From Candidatus Methanophagales archaeon (lineage in GTDB: Archaea > Halobacteriota > Syntropharchaeia > Alkanophagales > Methanospirareceae), in the NCBI GenBank assembly GCA_003336485.1, contig QENH01000192.1, forward strand, positions 1 through 50,163: DNA of 50,163 nucleotides. Direction: 5' to 3'. The notes below the pieces were generated by a model, which was given only the letters and a program-made list of their open reading frames with translations, searched no databases and had not been told where the DNA came from. Below are positions 11,135-46,667 of this stretch, piece by piece; position 1 is the stretch's first letter, and each line of letters starts with the position of its first letter. Made by a program: the position numbers and the translations under genes.

Positions 11135-12436
11135 TCATTCTTCTATTGGTGGATAGATAAACACCCCCTCACCCACATATGTAATTGGTACGCCCTGAAA
11201 TCTATCCAGATATTCCTCATGAATCGCATGTGGATCTAAGTCATCGAAAAGATCCGGATGAAACAATTTTGCTCGGTACAAGGTGCCGATAAAAGATCTT
11301 ACATAATTGACATCCGTCCGGATAGCATAAACACGCCCATTCTTCACGGCATCGACCTCCGCAAGTTCAGTACGATTCATGAATACATCACATTTTCCTT
11401 TTATTTCATCAAGAGTGCCATAGCCGGTGAGTATAACAAACTCAGGATTTTGTTCTACCAGCCATTCTGGATCAACATACGAAGAAGGTAAGTCCGCAGC
11501 TATGTTTATCCCACCTGCCATGACGCACATCGCATCGCCTGTACTACCTGCGCCTGATGCATAATACTTACCACGAGAGTAACTGCCAACATATACTTTC
11601 GGTCTCTCATCTTCTGTTAGCCCTTCTGTTCGAGCTTTCAGGATCTCCAGGTATTCGTTGATGTAACTACTAAGCTCCTCAGCCACCTCCACATTATCCA
11701 AGATATATCCCAGTTTTAATACGTCTTGTAGCACAGTATCGCCGTAGAACGAGAACCGAACCACTCTGATGCCAACATCCTCAATCTTATCCTCATAAGC
11801 TATGTCGGGCGAGTTACCATATGTGAAATAAAGGTCAGTCTTGAGATTGAGCATTTCCTCGATGTCTGGTGTTGAATATCGTCCAATAGATGGGAGTTTA
11901 CTAATCTCAGGATAGAAATCTTCACGTTTCACAGAGGATGAGCCAACACCCACCAGTTTGTCTGTTGCATCGATCCCACGAACTGCTTCAGGGATATAGG
12001 TGGAACCTGTTATAAACCGCTCTACTGGCATTTTTATCGTCTTCACTTTCCCGAACGGGGGGTCATCTATGATCGTAAGTTCATTCTCCTTACCCACGAT
12101 GATCAACTTAATCTGCACAAAATCCAGCGGGTTTATCTCACCATCGTATTTCGCATCTACCAACTCCGTCTCCGGCCTTTCGCCGAAGAAAATAAGCTTT
12201 ACGTATGTCATGTCTCGCATATCGATCGTATCGTCTTCATTCGCATTACCATAGATGCCCAAGACGAAATCGTCTTCGGACGCTGTCAGGACACTTACAC
12301 GCTCTTTTTGTATGTTTTGATCAGCGGCGATTGCAGGAAAAGCCACTAATAGCATCGAACACAGCACAATTGCTATCACTACAAACCTTTCCGTTAATGG
12401 AAAAGGTTTGCCAAAAGAACATTCTTTAGTTTTCAT
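11135..12436 (-). CDS. Dockerin-bearing substrate-binding protein, BtuF/FepB type (SBP 1)
   Basis: 433 residues: signal peptide about 1-38 (FVVIAIVLC core, ending FPAIAADQ), dockerin about 55-117 with two calcium-loop repeats (GNANEDDTIDMRD and DAKYDGEINPLD), then a Peripla_BP_2 ligand-binding domain to the C-terminus. The junction after the dockerin (IIDDPPFGKVKTIKMPVERF) differs from both main linker types of the set. One Met replaces Leu in the first dockerin helix (RDMTYVK), and VDAK replaces ADAK. The C-terminal helix HPDLFDDLDPHAIHEEYLDRF and the closing FIYPP are family-typical. It is the second SBP of its unit, 64 nt after SBP 2, and is followed at 4 nt by a methyltransferase. The ligand is not evident; corrinoid, haem-like or iron complexes fit the family. 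Confidence 0.88.
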   Translation of the reverse strand: MKTKECSFGKPFPLTERFVVIAIVLCSMLLVAFPAIAADQNIQKERVSVLTASEDDFVLGIYGNANEDDTIDMRDMTYVKLIFFGERPETELVDAKYDGEINPLDFVQIKLIIVGKENELTIIDDPPFGKVKTIKMPVERFITGSTYIPEAVRGIDATDKLVGVGSSSVKREDFYPEISKLPSIGRYSTPDIEEMLNLKTDLYFTYGNSPDIAYEDKIEDVGIRVVRFSFYGDTVLQDVLKLGYILDNVEVAEELSSYINEYLEILKARTEGLTEDERPKVYVGSYSRGKYYASGAGSTGDAMCVMAGGINIAADLPSSYVDPEWLVEQNPEFVILTGYGTLDEIKGKCDVFMNRTELAEVDAVKNGRVYAIRTDVNYVRSFIGTLYRAKLFHPDLFDDLDPHAIHEEYLDRFQGVPITYVGEGVFIYPPIEE

Positions 12437-12500
12437 TTTTTGTTATCACCTTTTTTATTTCTTTCTCTGCACAGTTTTCTCCTTTTACCTCTACTGGCCT

Positions 12501-15281: not shown

Positions 15282-16643
15282 TCAACTCCCCTCGATCCAC
15301 GGCGTGGGATATGCATACACACCTTCATACTCTATGCCAAGGAACGTCTCCAGCCACTCTTTGTGAATAGCTACGGGGTCTACATCTTCGAACAGCTCAG
15401 GGTAGAAATACTTAGCCATACATGAGAGCCAGACAGAATGATGCGTTGACGAGGTGCCGGTACTGACAAAGTACACTCTCCCGTCCTTGACCGCATCGAT
15501 ATGATCAAAACCAGGATAATTCATGATGGATTCATTTCTTATTTCTTCCACAGAACTGGTATCCGATATACCGTATCCGAGAACACCGGAAGCACTGGCA
15601 AAGATCACCTAGGGGTTCCTTACGATGATTTCTTCAGGGTCCACTGCTACGTAGCTTTCTACGTCGGCGAAGGTGTTGATACCACCACAGAGCACAATAT
15701 CATTCTGTTTGGAGGTCCCGCTGCCTGCAGTATGTGTGGGGTCACCGTAATAACCAACACCCAGACAGTAATACGCGCGAGTTCTCTCTTCAGGCTCCAT
15801 ATCCTTCACTCGCTCTTTTATTAAGCTGATGTGCTGCTGCTCGAAGTCGATGAGCTCTTCCGCCCGATCCTTATTGTTCAACAACCATCCCAAGTTACTA
15901 ATCTCTCTGGAATGTTTTTCCGGTTGATGGAAATCCATATGAACTAACGGAATGCCAGCATCGTCAAATGATTCGTCAGTATCTGGATAATACCTGTACG
16001 AGTAGGTAAGTACAATGTCAGGCCTGAGTTCCAGGACTTTTTCCAGATCAAAACCACCGTGGCCAAGATCATGTCCTTTTCCAACCGAAGGCTTATCCCT
16101 TACCAAGGTTTTGATTTCTCTTTCTTTTTTCTTTGCCCCGTCGGTGACTCCAACGATCCTATCCTGTGCCCCGAAGGTACAAACCGCTTCAGCGGCGTAA
16201 TTACTCAGGGTTACTACTCGTTCTATCGGCATGGGAACCGTTACAGGTTTTTCAATGAGATCCGGAGGATATCCAAGATACTGAAGCAGCGTAAGCTCCT
16301 TCTCCTTACCCACAATGATCAGCTTAATCTGCACAAAATCCAGTGGGTTTATTTCAGCATCGTATTTCGCATCTGCTAACACCGTCTCCTGCCTTTCGCC
16401 AAAGAAAATCAGCTTTACGTACGTCAAGTCCCGCATGTCAATCGTATCGTCTTCATTTGCATTGCCGTAGATGCCTAAGACGAAATCGTCTTCGGGAGCT
16501 GTCAGGACACTTACACGCCCCGTTTGTATGTTTTGCGCATCAGCAATCACAGGTAATGCCACTAACAGCGTCAAACAGAGCACAATTGCTATTTCTATCA
16601 ATGTTAATGTTTCCGTTTTCATTTTTTTATTTCCTATATTCAT
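15282..16643 (-). pseudogene. Dockerin-bearing substrate-binding protein with in-frame TAG (SBP 4)
   Basis: The 344-codon first part (15609-16643) and the 108-codon rest (15282-15608) are in the same frame and separated only by TAG at 15609-15611. At the break the text reads RNP-stop-VIFA, where the neighbouring paralogue has RNPQVIFA, so CAG has become TAG by one transition. Signal peptide to about residue 37, dockerin about 52-114, with Ala in the second calcium loop (KYDAEINP), which could weaken it. The linker is LLQYLGYPPDLIEKP. Everything after the TAG is intact through FLGIEYEGVYAYPTP. Possible readings are a fresh nonsense mutation, a sequencing error, or readthrough as pyrrolysine. 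It is coupled to SBP 5 by a 4-nt overlap. Confidence 0.8.
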
Positions 16644-18010
16644 GACACCGGATAAGTTGGGTATGCATACACACCCCTATACTTTATGCCAAGAAACGTC
16701 TCCAGCCACTCTCTGTGAATCTCTACAGGGTCTACATCTTCGAACAGCACAGGGTAGAAATACTTAGCCATATATGAAAGCCAAATACAGTGATGCGTTG
16801 ATGAGGCGTCAGAGCTAACAAAGTATACTCTTCCGTTTTTGACTGCGTCGATGTGATCAAAACCCGGATAATTCATGATAGTTTTCGTTCGTACTTTTTC
16901 CACTGAACTAGTATCGGTTATATCATATCCGAGGGCACCCGTAGCAGCACCACACCACGTATCTGCAAAGATTACTTGAGGGTTTCTTATGATCACTGCC
17001 TCAGAATCTACTACCTCATAGTGGCCTTCCAGATCATCAAAGATATTGATGCCGCCGCAGAGCTCGATATCAGTCTGCTTGGCTGTACTTTTACCCGATG
17101 TGTGAGTAGGGAGGCCGTAATAACCAGCATGTGAACAGTAATACACTCGTGTTTTCTCTTCGGGTTTCAAGTCATCTACTCGCTCTTTTATAAGGTCGAT
17201 GTGTCGCTGCTCAAAGTGGATAAGCTCTTCAGCCCGATCTTTATTGTCCATTAACCACCCCAGGTTTCTAATCTCTCTGGAATACTTTTTCGTTTGATAG
17301 ATATCCACCTGAACCAACGGAATGTCAGCAGCATTCAACGGTTCTTCGAGGTTAGGAAAAGACTTGAACGAAAAAGCAAGCACGATGTCAGGTTTCAACT
17401 CTATGATTTTTTCAATATCCCAATCTCGACAACAGCCTTTTCCGACCGAAGGCTTATCTTTTAAGAAAACATTAAGTTCTCCTATATTCTTTGTATAGTC
17501 AGCGACTCCAACGATCCTATCCTGCGTACCAAAGGCACAAACCGCCTCCGCAGCGTAACTACTGACGACAACTATTCGCTCTATTGGCATGGGGACTGTC
17601 ACTGCTTTTTCAGTAAAATCAGGCGGATATCCCATATACTGAAGCAGCGTAAGCTCCTTCTCCTTGCCTACGATGATCAACTTAATCTGCACAAAATCCA
17701 GCGGGTTTATTTCGTCATCGTATTTCGCATCTGCTAACTCCGTCTCCGACCTTTCGCCGAAGAAAATCAGCTTTACATACGTCAGGTCTCGCATATCGAT
17801 CGTATCGTCTTCATTTGCGTTGCCGTAGATGCCTAAGACGAAATCGTCTTCTGAAGCAGTTGTAACTTTGGATGCACTTGCTTTTTGCAGGGTTTGCTCA
17901 GCAGCAATTGCAGGTAAAGCCACTAAAAACAGCGAGCAAATCACAATTGCCATTTCTACTAATGCTAATATTTTGTTTTCATTTTTCATTTTTTTCATTT
18001 TTTTACCCAC
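16640..18010 (-). CDS. Dockerin-bearing substrate-binding protein (SBP 5)
   Basis: 456 residues: signal peptide to about 38 (VALPAIAAEQ), dockerin about 55-117 with Asp for Gly in the second loop (KYDDEINP), linker LLQYMGYPPDFTEKAVTV, then the binding domain (IVVVSSYAAEAVCAFGTQDR; CCRDWDIEKIIELKPDIVLA). It is the closest paralogue of the TAG-interrupted SBP 4 next to it. The double Cys (GKGCCRDWD) and the AGYYGLPTHTSGKST loop are features that may contact ligand. The ATG is at 18010; Met5 and Met8 are alternatives. The 123 nt upstream (18011-18133) contain no visible gene or promoter copy, so it is probably read through from SBP 6. Confidence 0.87.
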   Translation of the reverse strand: MGKKMKKMKNENKILALVEMAIVICSLFLVALPAIAAEQTLQKASASKVTTASEDDFVLGIYGNANEDDTIDMRDLTYVKLIFFGERSETELADAKYDDEINPLDFVQIKLIIVGKEKELTLLQYMGYPPDFTEKAVTVPMPIERIVVVSSYAAEAVCAFGTQDRIVGVADYTKNIGELNVFLKDKPSVGKGCCRDWDIEKIIELKPDIVLAFSFKSFPNLEEPLNAADIPLVQVDIYQTKKYSREIRNLGWLMDNKDRAEELIHFEQRHIDLIKERVDDLKPEEKTRVYYCSHAGYYGLPTHTSGKSTAKQTDIELCGGINIFDDLEGHYEVVDSEAVIIRNPQVIFADTWCGAATGALGYDITDTSSVEKVRTKTIMNYPGFDHIDAVKNGRVYFVSSDASSTHHCIWLSYMAKYFYPVLFEDVDPVEIHREWLETFLGIKYRGVYAYPTYPVS

Positions 18011-19513: not shown

Positions 19514-20923
19514 CTATGTACCTTGCCTCCACTGAGTAGGATAAGCATAAACGCCCTTGTAGGGTATACCAAGGAACTCATCAAGCCAGTCTTCGTGCAT
19601 CTCGATCGGGTCCAGGTCTTCGAACCTGTCAGGATGGAGCCATTTTGCCATGTAGAGGGCGTAGATACTTGAATGTAGCCCACCTGCACTATTGCAAATC
19701 ATATATGCATCACCATTTTGGACTGCCGAGGTGCAATCCCAGCCAGTGCTATTCATGAACATTCCCCTTATTTTATGCATCGAGCTAGAATCTGCGACAT
19801 CGTAGCCACATTCTACGAAACCTGCATACCCTGGATAAACATCCATGATAAGTATTTCTGGATTTCTACCGATGATTGCTTCTGTATCCACCTGCTGGTA
19901 ACTTTCTATATCGGCAAAGGCATTGATACCGCCTGCTCGGACAATGCGGTTATCACCGCTGGTATCAGAACCTGCGATATAACATGGTGGCGCCTCATTA
20001 AAAGAGAATGCATGAAGTTTCTCGTCATCATCATCCGGGATAAAAGTACCCGGAGGGCATGGACAATAAACCCCATAAACCGTGCTGGGCTTCTCATTCT
20101 CAGGGATTTCCGATACACGCTCACCTATAAGTCCATATAGCTCTTTCTCGAACTTAATAAGCGCCTCCGACTTTTCCTGATTACTCATCAGCCATCCCAG
20201 AACCCCAAACTCTTCAGCATACTTCTCTGGCTCATCTAAGTCTGTCAAGAGCATGGGTATGCCGGCATAACTTAACTGCTCCTCATATATTGGATAATAT
20301 GTGCGGAAATATGTAGATGCGACAACAACATCTGGCTCCAGGCTTATGACCTTTTCGACATCCATGGAACTACTATATACTCCGATTTCCTCTTTAGCCT
20401 TGATGAGTTCTGCAATCTCACCGACTTTCTTTGTGAATCCGTCAACACCAACGATCGTGTCTTCCAATCCGAAAGTGCAGATTGCTTCGCATGCATAACT
20501 ACTCGCTGTAACAATCCTATCAGTAGGTATGCTTATAGTCACTGGCTCTTCTGTAATATCCGGTGGTGTTCCGAGATACTGAACAACAGTAAGCTCATTC
20601 TCCTTGCCCACAATGATCAACTTAATCTGCACAAAATCCAGTGGGTTTATCTCGCCATCGTATTTCGCATCTGCTAACTTCGTCTCCGGCCGTTCACCGA
20701 AGAAAATCAGCTTTACGTACGTCAAATCGCGCATATCAATCGTTTCATCTTCATTTGCATTGCCGTAGACGCCTAAGACAATATCGTCTTCGGAAGCTGT
20801 TGTGGCCGTGCATGCACTCACTTTTTGCACGTTTTGCGCAGCGGCAATCGCAGGTATAGCCACTAAAAATAGCGATAAAAGTACGATTGCTAATTCTAAG
20901 AAAGCTATGCTTTTTCTTTTCAT
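19514..20923 (-). CDS. Dockerin-bearing substrate-binding protein (SBP 7)
   Basis: Start placed at ATG 20923 (MKRKSIAFLELAIV, 469 residues): the frame is open further upstream, but that would cross the promoter element at 20971-21020 and add a segment unlike a signal peptide. Signal peptide 1-30, dockerin about 46-108, linker VQYLGTPPDITEEPVTI. Unique to this copy is an insertion with clustered Cys, Pro and Asp (YCPCPPGTFIPDDDDEKLHA) before the ligand loop AGSDTSGDNRIV. It is first gene of its unit and the sister of SBP 2, including the identical C-terminal WRQGT and TAG stop. Confidence 0.88.
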   Translation of the reverse strand: MKRKSIAFLELAIVLLSLFLVAIPAIAAAQNVQKVSACTATTASEDDIVLGVYGNANEDETIDMRDLTYVKLIFFGERPETKLADAKYDGEINPLDFVQIKLIIVGKENELTVVQYLGTPPDITEEPVTISIPTDRIVTASSYACEAICTFGLEDTIVGVDGFTKKVGEIAELIKAKEEIGVYSSSMDVEKVISLEPDVVVASTYFRTYYPIYEEQLSYAGIPMLLTDLDEPEKYAEEFGVLGWLMSNQEKSEALIKFEKELYGLIGERVSEIPENEKPSTVYGVYCPCPPGTFIPDDDDEKLHAFSFNEAPPCYIAGSDTSGDNRIVRAGGINAFADIESYQQVDTEAIIGRNPEILIMDVYPGYAGFVECGYDVADSSSMHKIRGMFMNSTGWDCTSAVQNGDAYMICNSAGGLHSSIYALYMAKWLHPDRFEDLDPIEMHEDWLDEFLGIPYKGVYAYPTQWRQGT

Positions 20924-20970
20924 TTTCTTTATTGTCTTGTCCTCTTTGGTGAAGTATAGTAATAACGTAC

Positions 20971-21020
20971 AGTATTTATAACTTACATTTTTGGTAATAC
21001 ATATTGCCCAAATGGCTAAA
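20971..21020 (-). promoter_or_regulatory. Shared promoter/operator element, copy C
   Basis: Plus-strand order: AGTATTTATA (TATA box), CTTACATTTTT, GGTAATACATATTGCC (20993-21008) and GGCTAAA (21014-21020). Half-sites GGTAA (20993) and GCTAA (21015) are 22 bp apart. The TATA box lies about 50 nt before the chosen ATG of SBP 7. The core differs from copy B only in the right arm (TTGCC for TTACC). Confidence 0.75.
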
Positions 21021-21168
21021 TAGTTATTGGCATGCATACTTCATCGCGTATACAATATACCCGTGTCCAACACACATGCATAATGTAATGATTGATTCTG
21101 AAAGCGTGGTGTTTTTATATTCCTGGATGGGTTTACAGAACGGAAAAGAGAAAAATGAAGAAGAATAG

Positions 21169-21457: not shown

Positions 21458-22945
21458 CTAAGTTGTTTCATACCATATATGCCGGAATACTCTGGCTCTA
21501 TCAGCCCAATATTTGGTTAAGCCGCCATATTCTTCATCCTGGTCGGCCATTGCTAACAGCGGTTTGGAACTGCAAGGGCGTTCAAGCGCTCTACGAGCTT
21601 CAATAGCTGCATCAACAACCGCCCAATAACCAATCCTGAAGAAATAGCCCGACAGTCTGCTAGGTACAAGCGTTTTGAATCCATTTTTCTCATACCACCA
21701 TGCACTCGCACTAGCAAGAGCGGGAGGCACTACCAGGTCTGGCCTACACCTCTTTAACGCTTTGAGTTCTTCTTCAAGCGTTGGCTCTATCATTATCTCG
21801 GGGTCGGAATAATACTTCAAGCAGAATTCATGCCACATCTCTGCTGTTCTCTCCTTTGCTTCATCATTTAGCAGCATATCAAAATTAGTTCCTGTTCTGA
21901 ACCTAAGGATGAGGAGTTCGCACTTCATACCACAATATCTGACCAAGTCAGCAGCATACCCACCGGTATATGAGCCAACCACAGATAAGATTTTCCCTTT
22001 TAGTGCTGGCAAGTGCGTAGCAAGAGCTTCTTCTGCCTTGCCTCTGCTTCGCTTAGCAACCTCTTCTGCGGCCCCTTCTATATTGTATACCTTACCAATA
22101 TCCATCAATAACTTATCCACGCCGTCAAATCCGTAGGGTCCGTACTCAATGGAACTGTATCGCGGCTCCGGGTATAGTTCTATGTATTTCATACCATAGT
22201 TCTTCTTTAGAAATTCTGTCCATGTCTCGGACGCATAATGAACGATCGAAGCCAAAGCTCGGGGCATCCTCTTTATATCGTCAACCGAATTATTATAGAA
22301 GTAGGAGCCATTCACGTGCAGGCCCATGTTTTGGATTAATGACGTAAGTTCTCGATTCCTCTGCCCTTCATCTGGGAATTGGACGAGTGTAGCGATGTTT
22401 ATAGCTTTTTCATCTTGCACTTCACAATCGCCATTTTCTAATAATTGTGTTATCAGCGCGTTTCTTATTATGCCAAAACCCCTCTTTGTCATGACACTAT
22501 CCTGCTCGCATGACACTAATGATGATACAACCACCTCGCATTGTACTTTTGTCTCTTCTCTAACCGCATCCATATAGTCGCCAATCTGATCAGCGACATC
22601 GGAAGAAATAACCAAAATAAGTTCCGGCTTGTACTTATCATAAACTTCCTCTAGCGCACCCAAAAGCCGATCATAAGCGCCATAAACCGTTTCTGCTTCT
22701 GTTAATGCGGTACAAGGCATATCATATATCGGATTCCAACCGCGGCATGGGTTTATCCTACGCTGAAATGCACAGCCTATTGGGCCATGCAGGAGGACAA
22801 CGGTGTTCTTTAACGAGGTTGCAATTGTAGTAGCACAAGAAATCTTACCGCCCAAAGCAGCCCTACCATGAATTGGCAAGCTCCAGACGCAACTAACCAT
22901 GAAGTCCTCCGGCAACAGCGAGTAATTGAAGCTATTATCGCTCAT
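21458..22945 (-). CDS. Nitrogenase component 1-like protein, D/alpha type (module II)
   Basis: 495 residues. It has Cys at the classical first position (GKISCATTIA, Cys37), HGPIGCAFQRR (Cys58) and DMPCTALTE (Cys78), but the third motif is SSDVADQIGDY: Asp116 for Cys, and IGDY for IGDD. An Asp cluster ligand is known in the beta subunit of BchNB, so this may be a real substitution. It overlaps the NifH-like gene by 4 nt and is last in the unit, giving the unusual order K-H-D. A TPCT/MPCT Cys motif is shared with modules I and III. It faces the DUF104 gene across a 91-nt convergent gap. Confidence 0.86.
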   Translation of the reverse strand: MSDNSFNYSLLPEDFMVSCVWSLPIHGRAALGGKISCATTIATSLKNTVVLLHGPIGCAFQRRINPCRGWNPIYDMPCTALTEAETVYGAYDRLLGALEEVYDKYKPELILVISSDVADQIGDYMDAVREETKVQCEVVVSSLVSCEQDSVMTKRGFGIIRNALITQLLENGDCEVQDEKAINIATLVQFPDEGQRNRELTSLIQNMGLHVNGSYFYNNSVDDIKRMPRALASIVHYASETWTEFLKKNYGMKYIELYPEPRYSSIEYGPYGFDGVDKLLMDIGKVYNIEGAAEEVAKRSRGKAEEALATHLPALKGKILSVVGSYTGGYAADLVRYCGMKCELLILRFRTGTNFDMLLNDEAKERTAEMWHEFCLKYYSDPEIMIEPTLEEELKALKRCRPDLVVPPALASASAWWYEKNGFKTLVPSRLSGYFFRIGYWAVVDAAIEARRALERPCSSKPLLAMADQDEEYGGLTKYWADRARVFRHIWYETT

Positions 22946-23832
22946 TTCTCGACCTTCTTATACTTCTCCTTTGTCCTCTTCCTGATCTCTTTACCTATCT
23001 TCACCATCTCGTCCGGAGATAATGGCTTTGGGACTGAAGTTTGTGTGTTATTGTAAATTTTCATTGCCAACTCCCTGAACAAAGAGGCTATTTCTGTATT
23101 ACCGTCATATTCGATCACTGTATTGCCATCAATCTCCGCCTCTGCTATTTCATGTGCGTTTGGAACATGCCCAATAACATGTGAGCCGATCTTTTCTGCG
23201 AAGTCATAAACAACATCCGCTTCGTCCAGCATACCGCGAACATTATAGATTATCCCGCCTAATGGTGACCCACCTTTGTTTGCAAACTCGCTTATTCCCT
23301 TGCTAATATTATTTGCAGCGTAAAGAGCGAGATAATCCGCCGATGTTACTATATAGACCTCATCTGCCAAACCCCTCCTCAATGGCATTGCAAAACCACC
23401 ACATACAACATCGCCAAGCACATCGTATAATACTATGTCCGGTTTTAGCTCTTCAAAGACATTCAGTTTATTGAGCAAGTCTATCGCAACGATGACGCCT
23501 CTACCTGCACATCCAAAACCAGGTCTTGGCCCGCCACACTCGGCACAATGGACATCCCCATAACCCTTGTGGACGACCTCATCGAGCTTGATCTCCTTCC
23601 CCTCCACAAGCTCTTCAAGACCAAGCCGCTCAATCCCCTTATCTCGCGATACATCAAGTATAGTCGGTATCTGAACCTCTCCTGTCAAGTTCCTGGTGCA
23701 GTCTGCCTTGGGGTCACAGCCAATCATCATTACTGATAGCCCGTTATCAGACAGTGCAGCCACAATGTTCGATCCTATCGTCGATTTCCCTATTCCGCCT
23801 TTGCCGTAAAATGCTATTTGTCTCATTTTCAC
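22942..23832 (-). CDS. NifH-like ATP-dependent reductase (module II)
   Basis: 296 residues. P-loop FYGKGGIGKST (about 8-18), MIGCDPKADCTRNLTGE, cluster cysteines GFGCAGRGV (Cys108) and DVVCGGFAMPLRRG (Cys144). The glycine-rich segment here reads ECGGPRPGFG, with an extra Cys (AECGG) and Arg for Glu compared with the other two reductases. Four-base overlaps on both sides show tight coupling with the K-like gene before and the D-like gene after. It should transfer electrons to that pair. The three reductases in the window are clear paralogues. Confidence 0.93.
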   Translation of the reverse strand: MKMRQIAFYGKGGIGKSTIGSNIVAALSDNGLSVMMIGCDPKADCTRNLTGEVQIPTILDVSRDKGIERLGLEELVEGKEIKLDEVVHKGYGDVHCAECGGPRPGFGCAGRGVIVAIDLLNKLNVFEELKPDIVLYDVLGDVVCGGFAMPLRRGLADEVYIVTSADYLALYAANNISKGISEFANKGGSPLGGIIYNVRGMLDEADVVYDFAEKIGSHVIGHVPNAHEIAEAEIDGNTVIEYDGNTEIASLFRELAMKIYNNTQTSVPKPLSPDEMVKIGKEIRKRTKEKYKKVEK

Positions 23833-26887: not shown

Positions 26888-26890
26888 TCT

Positions 26891-28168: not shown

Positions 28169-28196
28169 TTTATACCTGGTTTTTATGTTTTAGGTG

Positions 28197-28313
28197 CTAT
28201 GTTTTAGGTTTTTTTAGGGAATTGAAATCTTGTGTAACTTGATACACCCCTATCACGAACTCATAGCTCTTCTGCCACACCTTCAAATCCTCAAAACCTG
28301 TTATTTGCTCCAT
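28197..28313 (-). pseudogene. Truncated four-helix-bundle (S23/IVS-type) protein remnant
   Basis: A 38-codon frame, ATG 28311-28313 to TAG 28197-28199, begins MEQITGFEDLKVWQKSYEFV and continues VYQVTQDFN. The FEDLKVWQK-(6)-VY-x-T-x-DF pattern is the first helix and turn of the four-helix-bundle proteins encoded by 23S rRNA intervening sequences and elsewhere (about 115-125 residues). Only the first third remains; it ends in Lys-rich text from an A-run and a TAG. It sits between the D- and K-like genes of module I, so it is probably the scar of an insertion and deletion there. Confidence 0.65.
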
Positions 28314-28317
28314 CTCT

Positions 28318-28345
28318 CACACCTCACACTTCACACCTCACACTT
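28318..28345. repeat. Two exact tandem copies of a 14-bp unit
   Basis: The unit CACACCTCACACTT is repeated twice without a mismatch (28318-28331, 28332-28345). The second copy covers the last codons of the module I D-like gene (KCEV and the stop) and the first lies in the spacer, so a copy-number change would alter the gene end. Confidence 0.7.
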
Positions 28346-35760: not shown

Positions 35761-35800
35761 GATCACCCTCTGCCGTTGAATATATCATAATAATACAAAT

Positions 35801-39690: not shown

Positions 39691-40998
39691 TTATTTGCCA
39701 TCCGGATGCTTCTCAGGATGATACACGAATACACCGTGCTCGTCCAAGTCGTAGTCTATGCGCTGGAATCTTGTCAGCCATTCCTGATGAATTGCATTTG
39801 GATTTAGGTCCTCAAATAGCTCGGGATGGAACCACTTTGCAAGATATGGTAATCCGAGGAACCATCCCCTCCACACCATTGAATCACCATGCAATAAATA
39901 GACTTCTCCATCTTCCACTGCGTCTACGTTCTCAAATACGGGGAGAGTCATGAACTCTGCTCTGAACGCTTTTGCTTCTGATAGGTCATCTACGTCATAG
40001 CCAAAAGTATGGGCTGGCCACCCGGATTGCACGAATATGATAGAAGGATTCTCCGCGATCACCCACTCAGGATCCACTGTGATCCAACCTCCGGGAAGAT
40101 TTCCGGCGATATTGATGCCGCCTGCCATTTTGATCATCTGATTTGCACCTTGATTAGCATTACCGTAAGTTTTCCATTCTTCGGATCGTCTATAGGTACC
40201 AAATACTCGTGGCTTATCGCCCTCGGAAAGCCCTTCTGTTCGATCTTTGATTATATCTACGTAGCCTTCATACCAATCAATGTACTTTTCAGCCTCCGCC
40301 CCCTTATTAAGGATATATGCAAGCTTTTCCACTGTTTCTGTGTATGTAAGTGGACTGGTGCAGTATGCGCCAATAACAGGTATGCCTGTTCCCTCAAGCA
40401 GGTCTGCAAGCTTTTCCGTTGCACTACCTGATGTAATCATAAGGACGAGATCTGGCTCAAGCGCGCATATACTCTCAGCGTCTGGTGCCCATGTGGAGCC
40501 AATGGATGGGAGCTGACTTAACTCCGGGAACAATAACTCTGCCGACTCTATGGTGGAGCTCACACCGACCACTTTGTCCTCTGCTCCAATTGCTTTGATA
40601 ACTCCCGCTGTCGCGTGATATGTGACGACCATCCTCTCCACTGGCATGCTTACCGTCACGATTCTATCGACTTCGTCCACAATCGTAAGCTCCGTCTCCT
40701 TACCCACGATAACTAACTTTATCTGTACAAAATCCAACGGGTTTATCTCGCCATCGTATTTCGCATCTGCCAACTCCGTCTCCGGCTTTTCGCCAAAGAA
40801 AATCAGTTTTACGTACGTCAGGTCTCGCATATCAATCGTATCGTCTTCGTTTGCGTTGCCGTAAATGCCTAGGACGAAATCGTCTTCTGTCGCAATCGCA
40901 GGTAAAGCCACTAAAAGCACCGAACACAGCGCAATTGCTATTACCACAAACCTTTTCGATAGAAAATGTTTACCAAAAGAACCTTTTTTTGTTTCCAT
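39691..40998 (-). CDS. Dockerin-bearing substrate-binding protein (SBP 12)
   Basis: 435 residues: signal peptide to about 37 (METKKGSFGKHFLSKRFVVI then LCSVLLVALPAIAT), dockerin 38-101, linker TIVDEVDRIVTVSMPVERMV. The binding domain has STWAPDAESICALEPDLVLM, KTYGNANQGANQMIKMAGG and INIAGNLPGGWITVDPEWVI. The DPEWVI strand is shared with SBP 1 and SBP 14 and marks a subgroup. The His/Lys-rich tail HGVFVYHPEKHPDGK resembles that of SBP 6. Only 15 nt separate it from SBP 13. Confidence 0.88.
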   Translation of the reverse strand: METKKGSFGKHFLSKRFVVIAIALCSVLLVALPAIATEDDFVLGIYGNANEDDTIDMRDLTYVKLIFFGEKPETELADAKYDGEINPLDFVQIKLVIVGKETELTIVDEVDRIVTVSMPVERMVVTYHATAGVIKAIGAEDKVVGVSSTIESAELLFPELSQLPSIGSTWAPDAESICALEPDLVLMITSGSATEKLADLLEGTGIPVIGAYCTSPLTYTETVEKLAYILNKGAEAEKYIDWYEGYVDIIKDRTEGLSEGDKPRVFGTYRRSEEWKTYGNANQGANQMIKMAGGINIAGNLPGGWITVDPEWVIAENPSIIFVQSGWPAHTFGYDVDDLSEAKAFRAEFMTLPVFENVDAVEDGEVYLLHGDSMVWRGWFLGLPYLAKWFHPELFEDLNPNAIHQEWLTRFQRIDYDLDEHGVFVYHPEKHPDGK

Positions 40999-41013: not shown

Positions 41014-42306
41014 TCATGACACAGGATAAGTCGGGTAAGCATAGACACCATTAAACTCCATATCAAGAAACCTCTGGAACCATTCCTCGTGAATAGCTAC
41101 AGGGTCTAGATCCTCAAACAACTCGGGATGTATCCACTTCGCAACGTAGGAATGGAAAATACTTGGATGCACCGTTTTTGAGTCAAGACTGATTAGATAT
41201 ACACCACCATTCTTAACCGCATCGATGTGATCCCAGCCAGGATGGCCCATAATACTGTTTCTCAACTCGTCCATCGGTCCTGTATCGGTCACACCGTATC
41301 CACAAGGAAGCATATTTACACTCATCTCACGAAGAATTACCTGCGGGTTCCTCACAATTATTGCCTCGGGATCCACCTCTGCATAGTAATCAATCTCCTC
41401 AAAGATATTGGTACCACCGCAAAAGACAATGGTATTATGACCTACACCGCCAGTACCATAAGTGGTATAATCTCCGCCATGAGTCTCATAATATACTCGG
41501 GGCTTCTGATCTTCCTTCAAGTCCTCTACCCGCTCTTCTATAAGGCCAAGGTATTGCTGCTCGAAGTTGATAAGCTCTTCCGCCTTTTCTTGCTTCCCCA
41601 ACATCCAGCCACAGTTTCTTATTTCTCTGGAATACTTTTCCGGGCGGTAGAAATCCATCTGGACTACCGGAATGCCAGCAGCGTTTAACTTCTCCACGAA
41701 GTCCGGCCAAGTACGGAACGAATAAAGAAGTACGATGTCCGGATTCAGCTCCATAATCGCTTCTGTATCCCACTTGGAGTATCTTCCAACTGAAGGTATC
41801 TCCGCTACGAAGCTCTCAAATTCCGCTTTCTTCTTTGTTGAATCGTCAACACCAACGATCCCATCCTGCTCGCCAAAGGCCCAAAGCGTTTTTGCTGCGT
41901 AACTACTCAGAATAACGGTCTTATTTATCGGTGTATTGATCGTCACAGGTTTTTCTGTGATATCAGGCGATTTACCAAGATACTGAAGCAGCGTAAGTTC
42001 CTTCTCCTTACCCACAATAACTAACTTTATCTGTACAAAATCCAGCGGGTTTATCTCGCCATCGTATTTCGCGTCTGCCAACTCGGTCTCGGGCTTTTCG
42101 CCGAAGAAGATCAGCTTTACGTACGTTAAATCACGCATATCGATCGTATCGTCTTCGTTTGCGTTGCCGTAAATGCCTAGGACGAAATCGTCTTCTGCTG
42201 CAATCGCAGGTAAAGCCACTAAAAGCACCGAACACAGCGCAATTGCTATTACCACAAACCTTTTCAATAGATAAGGTTTACCAAAAGAACTTTTTTTTGT
42301 TTCCAT
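41014..42306 (-). CDS. Dockerin-bearing substrate-binding protein (SBP 13)
   Basis: 430 residues: signal peptide to about 37, dockerin 38-101, then the LLQYLGKSPDITEKPVTI linker. This is the only copy of that linker type in this unit. The binding domain has TVILSSYAAKTLWAFGEQDG, KLNAAGIPVVQMDFYRPEKY and VFCGGTNIFEEIDYY. Its N-terminus is nearly identical to SBP 12, while its binding domain is closer to SBP 4 and 5, so signal-dockerin and binding parts have different relatives. This looks like recombination or gene conversion. Confidence 0.88.
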   Translation of the reverse strand: METKKSSFGKPYLLKRFVVIAIALCSVLLVALPAIAAEDDFVLGIYGNANEDDTIDMRDLTYVKLIFFGEKPETELADAKYDGEINPLDFVQIKLVIVGKEKELTLLQYLGKSPDITEKPVTINTPINKTVILSSYAAKTLWAFGEQDGIVGVDDSTKKKAEFESFVAEIPSVGRYSKWDTEAIMELNPDIVLLYSFRTWPDFVEKLNAAGIPVVQMDFYRPEKYSREIRNCGWMLGKQEKAEELINFEQQYLGLIEERVEDLKEDQKPRVYYETHGGDYTTYGTGGVGHNTIVFCGGTNIFEEIDYYAEVDPEAIIVRNPQVILREMSVNMLPCGYGVTDTGPMDELRNSIMGHPGWDHIDAVKNGGVYLISLDSKTVHPSIFHSYVAKWIHPELFEDLDPVAIHEEWFQRFLDMEFNGVYAYPTYPVS

Positions 42307-42332: not shown

Positions 42333-43655
42333 CTAATTGTCAGGAATCCCAGCTAAGTCACCGCCACATTCTATGGGCGGATACGCAAATACTCCGTGCT
42401 CGTCCAGATCATAGTCCAACCCCTGAAAATCAGTTAAGTATTCCTGATGGATCGCCTCGGGATCCAAGTCCTCGAAGAGTTCCGGATGGAACCATTTCGC
42501 AAGGTATGCGAGATGCACAAAATGTGTGAGGTGCCCATGAGTCAGTTCTGTTGAGACCACATAAACCTGCTCGTTCTCCACAGCACGGATGTGGTCAAAT
42601 CCTGAACGATTCATGACACTTTCTCTTACCGCTTTCATTTCTGTTGGATCGTCCACTTCGTACCCTTGTGCGGCTTTGGAATCTACCTTAGCTATAATAT
42701 CCGGATTCTCCACTATCACCCATTCCGGATCTAGGATAGGATAATTCGAATAGGTCCCAGATCCAAGTTTCTCCGCTGCGATATTTATACCTCCTGCTGT
42801 TACAATAAGCAAGTGGTCTGCCGTATTTTCGTTAACCGTTAGGAAGTCTGAATATTCGTAGTATACGCGAGGTTTATCCACCTCTGATAGCTTCTCTGTT
42901 TTATCCGCAATTGAATCCACACAACCTTCATAGAACTCAATGAACTCTTCTGCTTCTTCCACCGTATCAAATATGTAACCCGCCTTTAGCATCTCTTCTG
43001 TCATTGTTTCTTGATTATAGCAGTCCAAAGCGACAACAGGAATTCCTGCGGGCGTAAGTTTTTCTACATTCTCTGTGCACCTAAAAGAACCCACAATCAC
43101 TATATCCGGATTGAGTTCAATCATCTCTTCGTAGTCCGGTGCGTTCCACTTTCCAACTGATGGTAACGTACTCAAGTAAGGGAAGAATATTTCCGCTTCT
43201 TTTACATGTTCTGGTACTCCAACCACCCGATCTTGCACATTAAGCACTCTAATTGCTTCTGCACTCCCGGTAGCTGCAAATAGCACTACCCTCTTGATGG
43301 GTTCCTCCACCGTTACGATTCTGTCAGCAGAATCCACGAGTGTGAGCTCCGTCTCCTTACCCACGATAATCAGCTTTATCTGCACAAAATCCAGCGGGTT
43401 TATTTCGCCATCGTATTTCGCATCTGCTAACTTCGTCTCCGGCTTTTCGTCGAAGAAAATCAGCTTTACGTACGTCAAGTCCCGCATGTCAATCGTATTG
43501 TCTTCATTTGCGTTGCCGTATATGCCTAAGACGAAATCGTCTTCTGCCGCAATCGCAGGTAAAACTACTAAAAACAGCAAAGACAGCACAATTGCTATTC
43601 CCACAAACCTTTTCGATAGAAAAGGTTTACCCAAAGAACTTTTTTCTGTATTCAT
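42333..43655 (-). CDS. Dockerin-bearing substrate-binding protein (SBP 14)
   Basis: 440 residues: signal peptide to about 37 (MNTEKSSLGKPFLSKRFVGI), dockerin 38-101 with Asp for Gly at the end of the first repeat (IFFDEKPET) and Asn for Asp in the first loop (NEDNTIDM), linker TLVDSADRIVTVEEPIKRVV. The binding domain has KWNAPDYEEMIELNPDIVIV and TVNENTADHLLIVTAGGINI. The C-terminus goes beyond the usual end (FAYPPIECGGDLAGIPDN) and has one Cys. It is the first SBP after the surface-anchor gene, 94 nt downstream, across a long GA-rich leader. Confidence 0.88.
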   Translation of the reverse strand: MNTEKSSLGKPFLSKRFVGIAIVLSLLFLVVLPAIAAEDDFVLGIYGNANEDNTIDMRDLTYVKLIFFDEKPETKLADAKYDGEINPLDFVQIKLIIVGKETELTLVDSADRIVTVEEPIKRVVLFAATGSAEAIRVLNVQDRVVGVPEHVKEAEIFFPYLSTLPSVGKWNAPDYEEMIELNPDIVIVGSFRCTENVEKLTPAGIPVVALDCYNQETMTEEMLKAGYIFDTVEEAEEFIEFYEGCVDSIADKTEKLSEVDKPRVYYEYSDFLTVNENTADHLLIVTAGGINIAAEKLGSGTYSNYPILDPEWVIVENPDIIAKVDSKAAQGYEVDDPTEMKAVRESVMNRSGFDHIRAVENEQVYVVSTELTHGHLTHFVHLAYLAKWFHPELFEDLDPEAIHQEYLTDFQGLDYDLDEHGVFAYPPIECGGDLAGIPDN

Positions 43656-43681: not shown

Positions 43682-43751
43682 CTTCTCTCTTCTCTTCTCT
43701 TCTCTTCTCTCATCTCACCTCTCCCTTCTCCCTTCTCCCTTCTCCCTTCTC
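43682..43751. repeat. 70-bp pyrimidine-rich simple repeat
   Basis: TCTCT units followed by several CCCTTCT units. In the mRNA this is a GAGAA/AGAAGGG tract that fills the leader between the anchor gene and SBP 14 and offers many SD-like sites. Such tracts change length easily, which could tune translation of SBP 14. Confidence 0.6.
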
Positions 43752-44802
43752 AGCGCCTCCTCCGTAGAGCATACGCAATCGCAGAAATCGCCGCTATTGC
43801 GAATATCGCATCGAATCCGGGCGTTTTTGACGTTGGTGTTGGTGCGGTCTCCTTAGATTTAGGTGTAGACGTTGGCTTTGCAGTTGGCGTTGACTTTACT
43901 GTCTGACTAGAACTTGGCGTTGCTTTTGGTGTTGGTGTCTGTGTTACGCCTGATGTCAGCGTAGGCGTTGGTGTCTGTGACCCTTCAGACGCTTCTGCTG
44001 ATTCCGCCGCCACGGACCATATCCAGATGTGCATACCTGATAAGTCCGTTTCTGTGTTCGTTACAATTGCCGATACGTTCCATGTGCCAGCAACTGCACT
44101 CTTCGTGTACTCTGCTTTCGTTACGCCTTCATCCTGTTGCACCTCCGTGTCATTTATTTGCCAGCTTATGTCTACTTCTTGGTCTACGGAGATCTCAAAG
44201 GTTATTGATTCGCCTTCTGTACTGTTTATCGCCTCTTCAGTAGGTACCCATGCGGTTATGGTCGGAAGTTGTTCTTCTTCGCTCTCCTCCTCTTCTACGA
44301 CATCAACTACATTTATCTCAGTGCCACGCAACTTTCCTACCGCTATAAACTCCGCTGCATTATCCACCAACTCCACATTGGAAATCTCTAACTCGCTTCT
44401 GTCTCTTTTCCCTCCTACTACTTCAAAACTAACCTTCGCTAAATCCCCTGAGCCACTTACGCCCGTAATCCCCGACATGGCAGCAATTACCGTTATGTGC
44501 CCATCATCGTCATCATCAGGAAACATCTCTGCGGGTATTGCCGTTCCATCCACATTACCTTCTGTAACACTAATGACGTCCACTACACTCGAATCAAAGG
44601 ACAAATCGAATTTCGCTCCGTTCAAATCATCTATCCCTTCTAGAGCTATGCTCACCTCAAAAGTACAGCCCTCCGCTACTTCCTCCGGTGCATTCACTCT
44701 TAGTTCCACCCCCCGCGCTGCTATTACAGGAGTAAATATAAGCGCCAGCAATAGAGTTGCTATTACTAATCCATAAACCCTACCATTACCTCTTTTGTTC
44801 AT
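43750..44802 (-). CDS. Surface-anchored single-cohesin protein with archaeal sorting tail
   Basis: 350 residues: signal peptide 1-29, one cohesin module about 31-166 (ELRVNAPEEVAEGCTFEVSI; KFDLSFDSSVVDVISVTEGN; SGITGVSGSGDLAKVSFEVV), an acidic linker (EEEESEEEQ), an Ig/PKD-like domain about 180-265, a Thr/Pro/Ser-rich stalk 275-326 and a tail of PGF (328-330), a hydrophobic helix and RRRR. The tail matches the PGF-CTERM signal handled by archaeosortase A, so the protein should be fixed to the envelope with the cohesin held outside. In cellulosome terms it is the anchoring protein for dockerin partners. It follows the four-cohesin gene and precedes six dockerin-SBP genes. The dockerin it binds is not provable from sequence, but those encoded here are the obvious candidates. 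Confidence 0.85.
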   Translation of the reverse strand: MNKRGNGRVYGLVIATLLLALIFTPVIAARGVELRVNAPEEVAEGCTFEVSIALEGIDDLNGAKFDLSFDSSVVDVISVTEGNVDGTAIPAEMFPDDDDDGHITVIAAMSGITGVSGSGDLAKVSFEVVGGKRDRSELEISNVELVDNAAEFIAVGKLRGTEINVVDVVEEEESEEEQLPTITAWVPTEEAINSTEGESITFEISVDQEVDISWQINDTEVQQDEGVTKAEYTKSAVAGTWNVSAIVTNTETDLSGMHIWIWSVAAESAEASEGSQTPTPTLTSGVTQTPTPKATPSSSQTVKSTPTAKPTSTPKSKETAPTPTSKTPGFDAIFAIAAISAIAYALRRRR

Positions 44803-44826
44803 ATCTCTTCCTCACCCCATTATATC

Positions 44827-44869: not shown

Positions 44870-44918
44870 ATTCTTGCATTTTCACCCCATTCTTTGTCTT
44901 GATTATGTATGGTGAAGA

Positions 44919-46667
44919 CTAGCTCAAGGTAACCTCGTCAGCAACCCACTCAGCAGGTATCTCATCCGCTTCGTTATTCGCAAGCATTCCATTGGATAGC
45001 TCTAATACACTTTTGTCCCCGCTTTTCCCTACTACATCGAAGCTAATAGTCGCTAAGTTACCGGAACCGTTTACGCCTGTAACACCAGAAAGCTCGCACA
45101 TTACCTTGATTGTATCCGAATCAATGAACTCCCACGTGGTTATAGGTACTGCTGTCCCGTCCAAACTACCCGCTGTAACATCTGTCACGTTCACCACACT
45201 CGAATCGAACGACAAATCGAAGAGTGCCATGTTGAAATTGGCTACATCTTCCAACACGTCTATCGCTGCTGTGAAAGACCCACCAACATCTACTAATTCC
45301 GGTGCGTTTACCGCAACCTTTACCGGACCCACGATAACCTCGTCATTAACCAACGTCGTAGGTATCTCTTCCGCTTTGTTATTCGCGAGCATAGCATCGG
45401 ATATTTCTAACACGCTTCTATCGCCATCTATCCCTAATACTGCAAAGTTAATAGTCGCTAAGTTACCGGAACCGTTTACACCTGTAACACCAGAAAGCTC
45501 GCACATTATCTTTATTGTGCCCGAATCAACGAGCTCCCATGAGGTTATAGGTACTGCTGTCCCGTCCAAACTACCCGCTGTAACATCGGTCACGTTCACC
45601 ACACTCGAATCGAACGACAAATCGAAGAGTGCCATGTTGAAATTGGCTACATCTTCCACTACATCTATTGTTGCTGTGAAAGACCCACCAGCATCTACTA
45701 ACTCCGAAGCGTTTACCGCAACCTTTACCGGACCCACGATAACCGCGACATTAACCAACGTCGTAGGTATCTCTCTCGCTTTGTTATTAGCAAGCATAGC
45801 ATCGGATATTTCTAACACGCTTCTATCGCCGCCTATCCCTAATACTGCGAAGTTAATAGTCGCTAAGTTACCGGAACCGTTCACACCTGTAACACCCGAA
45901 AGCTCGCTCATCACCTTGATTGTGTTCGAATCAATTAAATCCCATGAGGCTATAGGTACTGCTGTCCCGTCCAAGCTACCCTCGGTAACATTGGTCACTT
46001 TCACTACACTTGAATCAAACGACAAATTGAAGACGGCCATGTTGAAATTGGCTACATCGTCCAACACGTCTATCGTTGCTGTGAAAGACCCACCAGCATC
46101 TACTAACTCCGGTGCGTTTACTTCCACCCCTACTGGACCAACAATAACCTCGTCGTCAACCCACACTGCAAGGATCTCTTTCGATTCTATGTCCTTCAGA
46201 AGTCCATCGGATACGCTTAATACGCTTCGATCGCCACCTAGCCCTAATACGGCAAAGCTAATCGTCACTAAGTTACCGGAACCGTTTACACCTGCAACCC
46301 CCGAAACGTCAAGAAACACCCTTATTGTGTTACTATCTACGAATTCCCAGTTGTCCACCTGTATCGTTTCGCTGTCCAAGCTGCCATTTGCAACTCCTGT
46401 CACGTTCACCACGCTCGAATCGAATGACAGGTCGAACTGCCCTGAGTTGAAACCAGTAATGCTATCTATAGCTATGCTAGCATTAAAAGTACCCAGTACG
46501 TATTCGGGCGCATTTGCAGTGACATTTACAGTAGCTCCGGTATCCTGTGCAGCCAAACCAAGAATCACCGAAGAGCAGACAATCACTGCCAGAATGCAAA
46601 TGACTGCGCTTCTCGCAAAGATTTTTTTCCCACCAAACTTTTTTTTATACTTCCCGTTTTCTCTCAT
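44919..46667 (-). CDS. Secreted scaffold protein with four cohesin modules
   Basis: 582 residues: basic N-terminus and signal peptide to about 40 (SAVICILAVIVCSSVILGLA), then four cohesin repeats of about 134 residues (roughly 47-178, 179-313, 314-448, 449-582). Each has the F-x-LSFDSSVV-x-VT strand pair, a SGV-GVNGSGNL-TI-F strand and GDRSVL-x-x-SD/SN. Repeats 2 to 4 are nearly the same, and repeat 1 is more divergent. There is no catalytic domain, carbohydrate-binding module, dockerin or C-terminal membrane helix, so it is a pure scaffoldin, either free or held by an uncleaved N-terminal helix. First gene after promoter copy A. Four modules could hold up to four dockerin-SBPs. Cohesins outside cellulosomes are known in archaea such as Archaeoglobus. 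Confidence 0.87.
   Translation of the reverse strand: MRENGKYKKKFGGKKIFARSAVICILAVIVCSSVILGLAAQDTGATVNVTANAPEYVLGTFNASIAIDSITGFNSGQFDLSFDSSVVNVTGVANGSLDSETIQVDNWEFVDSNTIRVFLDVSGVAGVNGSGNLVTISFAVLGLGGDRSVLSVSDGLLKDIESKEILAVWVDDEVIVGPVGVEVNAPELVDAGGSFTATIDVLDDVANFNMAVFNLSFDSSVVKVTNVTEGSLDGTAVPIASWDLIDSNTIKVMSELSGVTGVNGSGNLATINFAVLGIGGDRSVLEISDAMLANNKAREIPTTLVNVAVIVGPVKVAVNASELVDAGGSFTATIDVVEDVANFNMALFDLSFDSSVVNVTDVTAGSLDGTAVPITSWELVDSGTIKIMCELSGVTGVNGSGNLATINFAVLGIDGDRSVLEISDAMLANNKAEEIPTTLVNDEVIVGPVKVAVNAPELVDVGGSFTAAIDVLEDVANFNMALFDLSFDSSVVNVTDVTAGSLDGTAVPITTWEFIDSDTIKVMCELSGVTGVNGSGNLATISFDVVGKSGDKSVLELSNGMLANNEADEIPAEWVADEVTLS
44922..46529 (-). repeat. Tandem cohesin-coding repeat, about 402 bp x 4
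   Basis: Approximate units 46134-46529, 45729-46133, 45324-45728 and 44922-45323. The last three share long identical DNA stretches, for example around the GTTAACGGTTCCGG-type segment that encodes GVNGSGN. Recent duplication or gene conversion is likely, and copy number may vary between strains or be collapsed in assemblies. Confidence 0.75.

What the first reader, a model, noticed from the sequence alone, without database searches (positions are those of the whole stretch)
11135..46667. A cohesin-dockerin surface array for substrate-binding proteins
Fourteen SBP genes of the BtuF/FepB (Peripla_BP_2) type each carry one dockerin with two calcium-loop repeats between signal peptide and binding domain. 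The same locus encodes a four-cohesin secreted protein and a single-cohesin protein with a PGF/TM/Arg4 surface-sorting tail. Known cohesin-dockerin systems mostly assemble polysaccharide-degrading enzymes. Here every dockerin partner is a ligand-binding protein of metal-chelate/corrinoid import and no hydrolase is present. The parts support a 'uptakeosome': scaffold, anchor and many receptors in front of one importer. I am not aware of a described system of this kind.
Basis: partly seen in the sequence, partly recalled or inferred. Interest (0 to 1): 0.93.

Follow-up and report, generated by a model that had tools for sequence, protein, structure and literature searches.

The report
Plug-in receptor array on ANME-1 cells
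A methane-oxidising archaeon (ANME-1) carries fourteen nutrient-catching proteins (two of them broken) that share one nearly identical 'plug', next to two proteins carrying the matching kind of 'sockets', which suggests many interchangeable receptors are clipped to the cell surface in front of one importer; the general idea was already noted for ANME, but this gene cluster and the evidence for shared plugs look new.

Summary
The window encodes 14 Peripla_BP_2 substrate-binding proteins (SBPs), each with an N-terminal two-loop dockerin; 12 are intact, one is frameshifted and one has an in-frame TAG. It also encodes a four-cohesin protein, a single-cohesin protein with a PGF-CTERM/TM/Arg tail, and one FecCD/ABC importer. 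The host is ANME-1.

For it: in ANME-1 the cassette [cohesin proteins]-[dockerin SBPs] recurs in several genomes and twice more in this one; all 15 ANME-1-order genomes with this dockerin also have cohesins; within an array dockerins are ~91% identical, SBPs ~42%; cohesins sort by the dockerin type beside them; the SBPs have cleavable signal peptides and no other anchor. Against it: 86 of 147 Methanomassiliicoccales genomes have such dockerin-SBPs but only 4 a recognisable cohesin (there the SBPs carry their own membrane helix); the scaffoldin has no dockerin to reach the anchor; binding is untested.

Not conceptually new: Chadwick et al. 2022 reported multi-cohesin scaffoldins and dockerin-bearing ABC SBPs in ANME. 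The array, its homogenised dockerins, the anchor-or-cohesin contrast and the link to nitrogenase-like and CobN/HmuS-like genes were not found in the papers searched.

The parts
44919..46667 (-). Four-cohesin secreted scaffoldin-like protein, 582 aa, no dockerin, no C-terminal anchor
   Evidence: PF00963 x4, E 3e-25; archaeal cohesin profile matches solved scaffoldin cohesins
43750..44802 (-). Single-cohesin anchor protein with Thr/Pro-rich linker and PGF-CTERM/TM/RRRR tail
   Evidence: PF00963 E 8e-10 and PF18204 E 8.5e-6
42333..43655 (-). Dockerin-SBP
   Evidence: PF01497; dockerin
41014..42306 (-). Dockerin-SBP; dockerin and full-length models predicted
   Evidence: PF01497; AlphaFold pLDDT 91.7 (dockerin) and 87.4 (whole)
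39691..40998 (-). Dockerin-SBP
   Evidence: PF01497
38397..39665 (-). Dockerin-SBP
   Evidence: PF01497
37126..38529 (-). Dockerin-SBP (true start probably the inner ATG, MKTKTMLALG)
   Evidence: PF01497
35849..37129 (-). Dockerin-SBP
   Evidence: PF01497
32641..33915 (-). Dockerin-SBP next to the importer genes
   Evidence: PF01497 E 6.5e-23, PF00404 E 3.8e-4
31543..32628 (-). FecCD/BtuC-type permease
   Evidence: PF01032 E 6e-93
30720..31508 (-). BtuD-type ATPase
   Evidence: PF00005 E 1e-35
19514..21037 (-). Dockerin-SBP
   Evidence: PF01497
18134..19450 (-). Dockerin-SBP
   Evidence: PF01497 E 2e-31
16640..18010 (-). Dockerin-SBP
   Evidence: PF01497
15282..16643 (-). Dockerin-SBP interrupted by an in-frame TAG at 15609-15611
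   Evidence: Sequence shown; PF01497
14226..15257 (-). Dockerin-SBP ending in a one-base frameshift (remaining coding continues to about 14028)
   Evidence: Sequence shown; PF01497
12501..13865 (-). Dockerin-SBP
   Evidence: PF01497
11135..12436 (-). Dockerin-SBP
   Evidence: PF01497
46940..50131 (-). CobN/BchH/HmuS-like protein with C-terminal TM and KRRRK tail; N-terminus lost at the contig end
   Evidence: PF02514 E 8e-255; closest solved chain 9d26 HmuS heme dechelatase E 9e-125; contig ends at 50163
21458..30686 (-). Nitrogenase-like (PF00148, NifH-like) and methyltransferase genes between the SBP arrays
   Evidence: same families recur beside dockerin-SBPs in other genomes

Best explanation
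This ANME-1 archaeon makes a family of at least 12 intact soluble receptors (SBPs) of different ligand-binding sequence but with the same dockerin plug. After cleavage of the signal peptide they have no membrane anchor of their own; they are retained at the cell surface by cohesins encoded in the same locus: one on a PGF-CTERM/TM-anchored protein and four in tandem on a scaffoldin-like protein. The receptors compete for a few equivalent sockets and hand their ligand, probably an organic metal chelate or tetrapyrrole, to the single FecCD/ABC importer of the locus. Shown by computation: domain identities, gene order, recurrence in other ANME-1 genomes, near-identity of dockerins within arrays, sorting of cohesins with dockerin types, absence of other anchors. 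Inferred: actual cohesin-dockerin binding, surface retention, ligand class, sharing of one importer. Unresolved: how the four-cohesin protein itself is held (it has no dockerin; its N-terminal helix might stay uncleaved).
For: Cohesin and dockerin folds supported by profile and model. The cassette cohesin protein(s) - PGF-anchored cohesin - dockerin SBP recurs in ANME-1 loci L107, L106, L110, L113, shorter in L104, and in this genome on C130 and (without the anchor gene) C153; OppA/NikA-type dockerin SBPs also follow a cohesin gene (L083, L096, L098). In the ANME-1 order 15/15 genomes with this dockerin also have cohesins. Within arrays dockerins average 0.91 identity and SBP parts 0.42 (127 pairs, dockerin higher in all); Methanomassiliicoccales arrays give 0.49 and 0.39 (11 pairs); locus means differ, Mann-Whitney p 1e-4. 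Fourfold-site divergence is 0.29 in dockerin and 0.67 in SBP, lower in 66/66 pairs, as after gene conversion. Cohesins beside type-B dockerins from five genomes form one group (91/98), apart from those beside type-A or Opp-type ones; this genome has members on both sides. Signal-peptidase-type end in 45/50 ANME-type dockerin SBPs and 0/42 Methanomassiliicoccales ones, with no C-terminal TM.
Against: No binding data. The same dockerin-SBP architecture is common in Methanomassiliicoccales with almost no cohesin, so the dockerin has or had another use. Calcium loop 2 lacks a canonical ligand. The scaffoldin has no encoded link to the anchor. Five sockets serve 12 receptors. Two receptor genes are broken. 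Cohesins are common in ANME-1 anyway (29 of 38 genomes without this dockerin), so genome-level co-occurrence alone is weak. Homogenised dockerins could partly reflect recombination without function.
Confidence: 0.62

Rival explanations
1. The dockerin is an old calcium-stabilised spacer or partner-binding domain of this SBP family, unrelated to the cohesins in function; the neighbouring cohesins serve other dockerin proteins of the cell.
For: 86/147 Methanomassiliicoccales genomes have the dockerin-SBPs and only 4/147 a recognisable cohesin; the genome has other dockerin proteins.
Against: In ANME-1 the two gene kinds are immediate neighbours in several genomes, dockerins are kept nearly identical only there, cohesin groups follow the adjacent dockerin type, and only there do the SBPs lack a membrane helix.
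Confidence: 0.2
2. The SBPs are released as diffusible scavengers, hemophore-like, or bind cohesins of the extracellular matrix or of the bacterial partner, so the system is mainly for capture or adhesion between cells rather than for feeding the cell's own importer.
For: Soluble secreted form without anchor; cohesin and dockerin proteins are expressed on both partners in some ANME consortia (PMC10553843); scaffoldin without a visible anchor.
Against: An importer of the matching type lies within the array and recurs beside dockerin-SBPs in other genomes; one cohesin protein has a PGF/TM anchor.
Confidence: 0.12
3. The array is mostly a product of recombination: duplicated genes share a homogenised 5' part (signal peptide and dockerin) because unequal exchange and gene conversion keep copying it, without selection for a shared partner.
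For: Signal peptide and dockerin DNA both show low silent divergence (fourfold 0.35 and 0.28 versus 0.65-0.68 in the SBP); two disrupted copies.
Against: Amino-acid identity of the dockerin (0.90) is well above that of the signal peptide (0.63) despite similar silent divergence, which points to constraint on the dockerin; the pattern recurs in nine ANME-type arrays.
Confidence: 0.06

Closest known systems
Dockerin-bearing ABC substrate-binding proteins and multi-cohesin scaffoldin-like proteins of ANME archaea (Chadwick et al. 2022, PMC9012536)
   Same: Same organisms, same module types, same suggestion that cohesins could localise dockerin proteins such as SBPs (NikA/OppA and TroA types) outside the cell.
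   Different: That report is a short genome survey without loci. Here the SBPs are Peripla_BP_2, in a 14-copy array with neighbouring cohesins, importer, nitrogenase-like and CobN-like genes, with evidence for dockerin homogenisation. The scaffoldins described there carry a dockerin; this one does not.
Clostridial cellulosome (type I cohesin-dockerin)
   Same: Tandem cohesins, single-cohesin anchor protein (comparable to OlpA), many cargo proteins with near-identical dockerins.
   Different: Cargo is ligand receptors instead of glycoside hydrolases; no carbohydrate-binding module; no scaffoldin dockerin for an anchoring cohesin; archaeal PGF-CTERM anchor instead of SLH or sortase.
BtuCDF/FecBCD-type (class III) ABC importers with anchored SBPs, e.g. 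PGF-CTERM-anchored SBP TIGR04281
   Same: SBP, FecCD permease and ATPase families match.
   Different: SBP anchoring by its own lipid or TM is replaced by a dockerin; a dozen SBPs per importer.
Hmu heme-uptake system with HmuS dechelatase (PMC12583661)
   Same: The CobN-like protein of the locus is closest, among solved structures, to HmuS; the locus couples it to a metal-chelate type importer.
   Different: Archaeal, dockerin-SBPs, nitrogenase-like reductases; no other hmu genes found; the EMBO J paper itself calls archaeal homologues functionally unclear.

Membership tests
Cohesin-dockerin scaffolded surface complex (cellulosome-like) | Cohesin modules, several in tandem on a non-catalytic secreted protein | tested here: met
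   PF00963 x4 at 44919-46667; profile hits to solved scaffoldin cohesins
Cohesin-dockerin scaffolded surface complex (cellulosome-like) | Type I dockerin with two calcium loops on the cargo | tested here: met
   caveat: Lys at ligand position 3 of loop 2
Cohesin-dockerin scaffolded surface complex (cellulosome-like) | Cell-surface anchor bearing a cohesin | tested here: met
   43750-44802, PF00963 + PF18204 PGF-CTERM
Cohesin-dockerin scaffolded surface complex (cellulosome-like) | Scaffoldin docks to the anchor through its own dockerin | tested here: not met
   No dockerin in the four-cohesin protein
Cohesin-dockerin scaffolded surface complex (cellulosome-like) | Calcium-dependent high-affinity binding of the cognate modules | not testable with these tools
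   Only indirect: co-sorting of cohesin and dockerin types
Cellulosome proper | Polysaccharide-degrading cargo and carbohydrate-binding module | tested here: not met
   Dockerin proteins of the window are SBPs; no hydrolase or CBM family among the proteins scanned
Class III (BtuCDF/FecBCD) ABC importer | PF01497 SBP, PF01032 permease, ABC ATPase in one locus | tested here: met
Class III (BtuCDF/FecBCD) ABC importer | Corrinoid, heme or siderophore as ligand | not testable with these tools
   Fold matches spread over YiuA, FepB, heme and B12 binders
ANME dockerin-SBP systems of Chadwick et al. 2022 | ANME host with dockerin SBPs and multi-cohesin proteins | tested here: met
   McrA 95.6% to a named ANME-1 genome; paper text
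HmuS heme dechelatase | CobN-family protein that removes iron from heme, in an hmu operon | tested here: inconclusive
   Closest solved chain is HmuS but NCBIfam CobN/BchH equivalog scores are below cut-off and no other hmu gene was found; the protein is truncated

The most novel reading that the evidence does not exclude
In ANME-1 a dockerin has replaced the membrane anchor of a whole receptor family, so that a dozen or more receptors of different specificity share one standard plug, kept uniform by gene conversion and selection, and are swapped in and out of a few cohesin sockets in front of one importer that feeds a tetrapyrrole or metal-chelate remodelling pathway (CobN/HmuS-like chelatase, nitrogenase-like reductases, methyltransferases).
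Probability: 0.4. Interest if true: 0.78.

Novelty: new variant of a known kind. Interest (0 to 1): 0.55.

Why it matters
If right, cohesin-dockerin assembly is used here for uptake rather than digestion, with a modular socket-and-plug logic for receptors. It gives a concrete test of what the many dockerins and cohesins of ANME-1 do, a question left open in the ANME genome surveys, and it gives a genomic context for archaeal CobN/HmuS homologues whose role was described as unclear in 2025 (PMC12583661). It also points to natural archaeal cohesin-dockerin pairs of at least two apparent specificities in one genome.

Tried and rejected
TAG read as pyrrolysine in SBP 15609: rejected as unproven; TAG is the normal stop of about ten other genes here and the paralogue has CAG. 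phmmer of the single four-cohesin protein against the PDB found nothing; a profile was needed. A regex for A-x-A alone did not separate cleaved from uncleaved N-termini because it also fires inside helices; replaced by a Pro...small-residue end rule, which is still no SignalP. Diverged cohesins as hidden partners in Methanomassiliicoccales: searched with an archaeal cohesin profile, 4/147. Absence of cohesin in CSMAG_2293 was partly an artefact: the profile finds one partial cohesin; Methanolliviera still has none. Peer et al. 2009 was not readable. Literature searches for dockerin with CobN and nitrogenase gave nothing, and for Methanomassiliicoccales with dockerin gave four papers whose titles and abstracts do not concern these SBPs (texts not read).
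Full report
WHAT IS THERE. The window is a whole 50,163-base contig (C10) of a 3.18 Mb, 201-contig genome. The McrA of that genome is 95.6% identical to ANME-1 AG-394-G06 and 76-92% to other ANME-1-type genomes, so the host is ANME-1. All genes discussed lie on the minus strand. From the right: a CobN-like gene cut by the contig end, a four-cohesin protein, a one-cohesin protein with PGF-CTERM/TM/RRRR tail, six dockerin-SBPs, a biotin-protein-ligase-N-like protein, one dockerin-SBP, FecCD permease and ATPase, a block of nitrogenase-component-1-like, NifH-like and methyltransferase genes, seven more dockerin-SBPs, and a second nitrogenase-like block.

THE DOCKERIN. Pfam Dockerin_1 is marginal for this type. 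A profile of 17 relatives matches solved clostridial dockerins with E down to 3e-8. The AlphaFold model of residues 36-106 of SBP 41014 has pLDDT 91.7 and pTM 0.79, and the first 32 PDB matches are all dockerins or dockerin complexes (Foldseek E-values are weak, 0.02 to 1.4, for so short a domain). Loop 1 is canonical (NANEDDTIDMRD). Loop 2 (DAKYDGEINPLD) has Lys at ligand position 3 in all 14 copies, where several other types have Asn (DANYDG), so calcium at site 2 is uncertain. The SBP part of SBP 41014 is predicted with high confidence; its closest solved folds are YiuA and FepB-like siderophore/iron SBPs, followed by heme and B12 binders. The ligand is therefore open within the chelate/tetrapyrrole class.

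COHESINS. The archaeal cohesin profile matches solved scaffoldin cohesins (E to 1e-8) and the chain labelled COHESIN, 2xdh (E 8e-7). In ANME-1 genomes the order multi-cohesin protein, cohesin-PGF anchor, dockerin-SBP recurs: L107, L106, L110, L113; a shorter form in L104; and in this genome on C130 and, without the anchor gene, C153. OppA/NikA-type dockerin-SBPs also follow cohesin genes (L083, L096, L098). In this genome 3 of the 4 contigs with the Peripla_BP_2-type dockerin (C10, C130, C153, C167) also carry cohesins, while only 8 of 201 contigs do; by my arithmetic the hypergeometric chance is about 2e-4, ignoring contig length.

CO-OCCURRENCE AND ITS LIMIT. In the ANME-1 order 15 of 53 genomes have the dockerin at E<=1e-4 and all 15 have cohesins, but so do 29 of the other 38, so this alone says little. 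Outside, the picture reverses: among 147 Methanomassiliicoccales genomes 86 have the dockerin type (up to 28 copies) and only 4 a cohesin. The dockerin is therefore not by itself proof of a cohesin partner.

WHAT SEPARATES THE TWO CASES. Two features differ between the cohesin-rich ANME-type genomes and Methanomassiliicoccales. First, anchoring: 45 of 50 ANME-type dockerin-SBPs end their N-terminal hydrophobic stretch like a cleavable signal peptide, against 0 of 42 in Methanomassiliicoccales, where the stretch looks like a permanent membrane helix (Fisher p 5e-21, inflated by relatedness; rule-based, not SignalP). No C-terminal membrane helix was seen in full-length members of either, and lipobox-like matches were rare. 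Second, uniformity: within arrays, dockerins are 0.91 identical and SBP parts 0.42 in ANME-type loci (127 pairs), but 0.49 and 0.39 in Methanomassiliicoccales (11 pairs; p 1e-4 on locus means, with one ANME entry, L156, being a duplicate of the window). Silent sites show that the 5' part of the genes (signal peptide and dockerin) has been homogenised, as by gene conversion: fourfold divergence 0.35 and 0.28 versus 0.65-0.68 in the SBP part, lower in dockerin than SBP in 66/66 pairs. Since signal peptide and dockerin have similar silent divergence but 0.63 and 0.90 amino-acid identity, selection on the dockerin is also indicated.

SPECIFICITY. This genome has at least two dockerin types for Peripla_BP_2 SBPs: A (window) and B (C130, C153). 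Cohesins beside type-B dockerins, from five genomes, form one group (support 91/98) separate from cohesins beside type-A and Opp-type dockerins, and this genome contributes to both sides. That is what cognate pairs would show, though linked inheritance of whole cassettes would give the same pattern. The anchor cohesin of the window sits on a long branch and its exact place is unsure.

HOW IT MOST LIKELY WORKS. Secreted, anchor-less receptors with a common plug are held by cohesin sockets of the same locus and serve the one importer. Computed: parts, recurrence, uniformity, co-sorting, lack of other anchors. Inferred: binding, retention, ligand, sharing of the importer. Not explained: what tethers the four-cohesin protein, which has no dockerin and no C-terminal anchor.

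THE SURROUNDING ENZYMES. The CobN-like protein is closest among solved chains to HmuS heme dechelatase (E 9e-125) and has a C-terminal TM and basic tail; dockerin-SBP loci of relatives carry a different, cytosolic-looking CobN of about 1,260 aa. With nitrogenase-like reductases and methyltransferases beside it, a tetrapyrrole or metal-chelate pathway is a reasonable guess, not a result. The 2025 HmuS paper calls archaeal homologues functionally unclear (PMC12583661).

NOVELTY. Chadwick et al. 2022 (PMC9012536) already state that ANME-1, -2a and -2c have proteins with a dockerin and up to five cohesins, and that common dockerin proteins in ANME are ABC substrate-binding components (NikA/OppA, TroA); from my own knowledge TroA-like annotation often covers Peripla_BP_2. 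Timmers et al. 2017 (PMC5244752) found dockerin and cohesin domains highly abundant in ANME-1 and ANME-2a. I found no paper describing this locus, the array homogenisation or the Methanomassiliicoccales dockerin-SBPs, in an open-access library that lacks subscription papers. Hence: new variant of a known kind.

Noticed in passing
window 1073-11130 and 21458-30686: Eight nitrogenase-component-1-like (PF00148), three NifH-like and five methyltransferase genes interleaved with the SBP arrays; same families recur beside dockerin-SBPs in other genomes. Function unknown; layout resembles chelatase-reductase-methyltransferase sets of tetrapyrrole synthesis.
   Followed up: partly
window 46940-50131: Surface-type CobN/HmuS-like protein with C-terminal TM and basic tail, containing an inserted SdrD_B/carboxypeptidase-regulatory-like segment; N-terminus missing at contig end.
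   Followed up: partly
window 14028-15257 and 15282-16643: Two SBP copies disrupted (frameshift; in-frame TAG where a paralogue has CAG); decay or assembly error cannot be told apart.
   Followed up: partly
L037, L047-L063, L167-L196: 86 of 147 Methanomassiliicoccales genomes carry dockerin-SBPs with a membrane-helix-like N-terminus, up to 28 copies, almost without cohesins: partner of these dockerins unknown.
   Followed up: partly
own genome C160, C131, C61 (L086, L087, L090): Large secreted proteins with a C-terminal dockerin ending in a Cys-rich tail, a different dockerin type in the same genome.
   Followed up: no
L042 (B64_G16, G001/G073): Another very large array: at least seven dockerin-SBPs in a row with 96% identical dockerins of a third type; genome has 25 dockerin matches of this family.
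   Followed up: partly
window 34156-35766: Protein with BPL_N (glutaminase-like) domain and no predicted membrane helix between importer and SBP array; role unclear.
   Followed up: no
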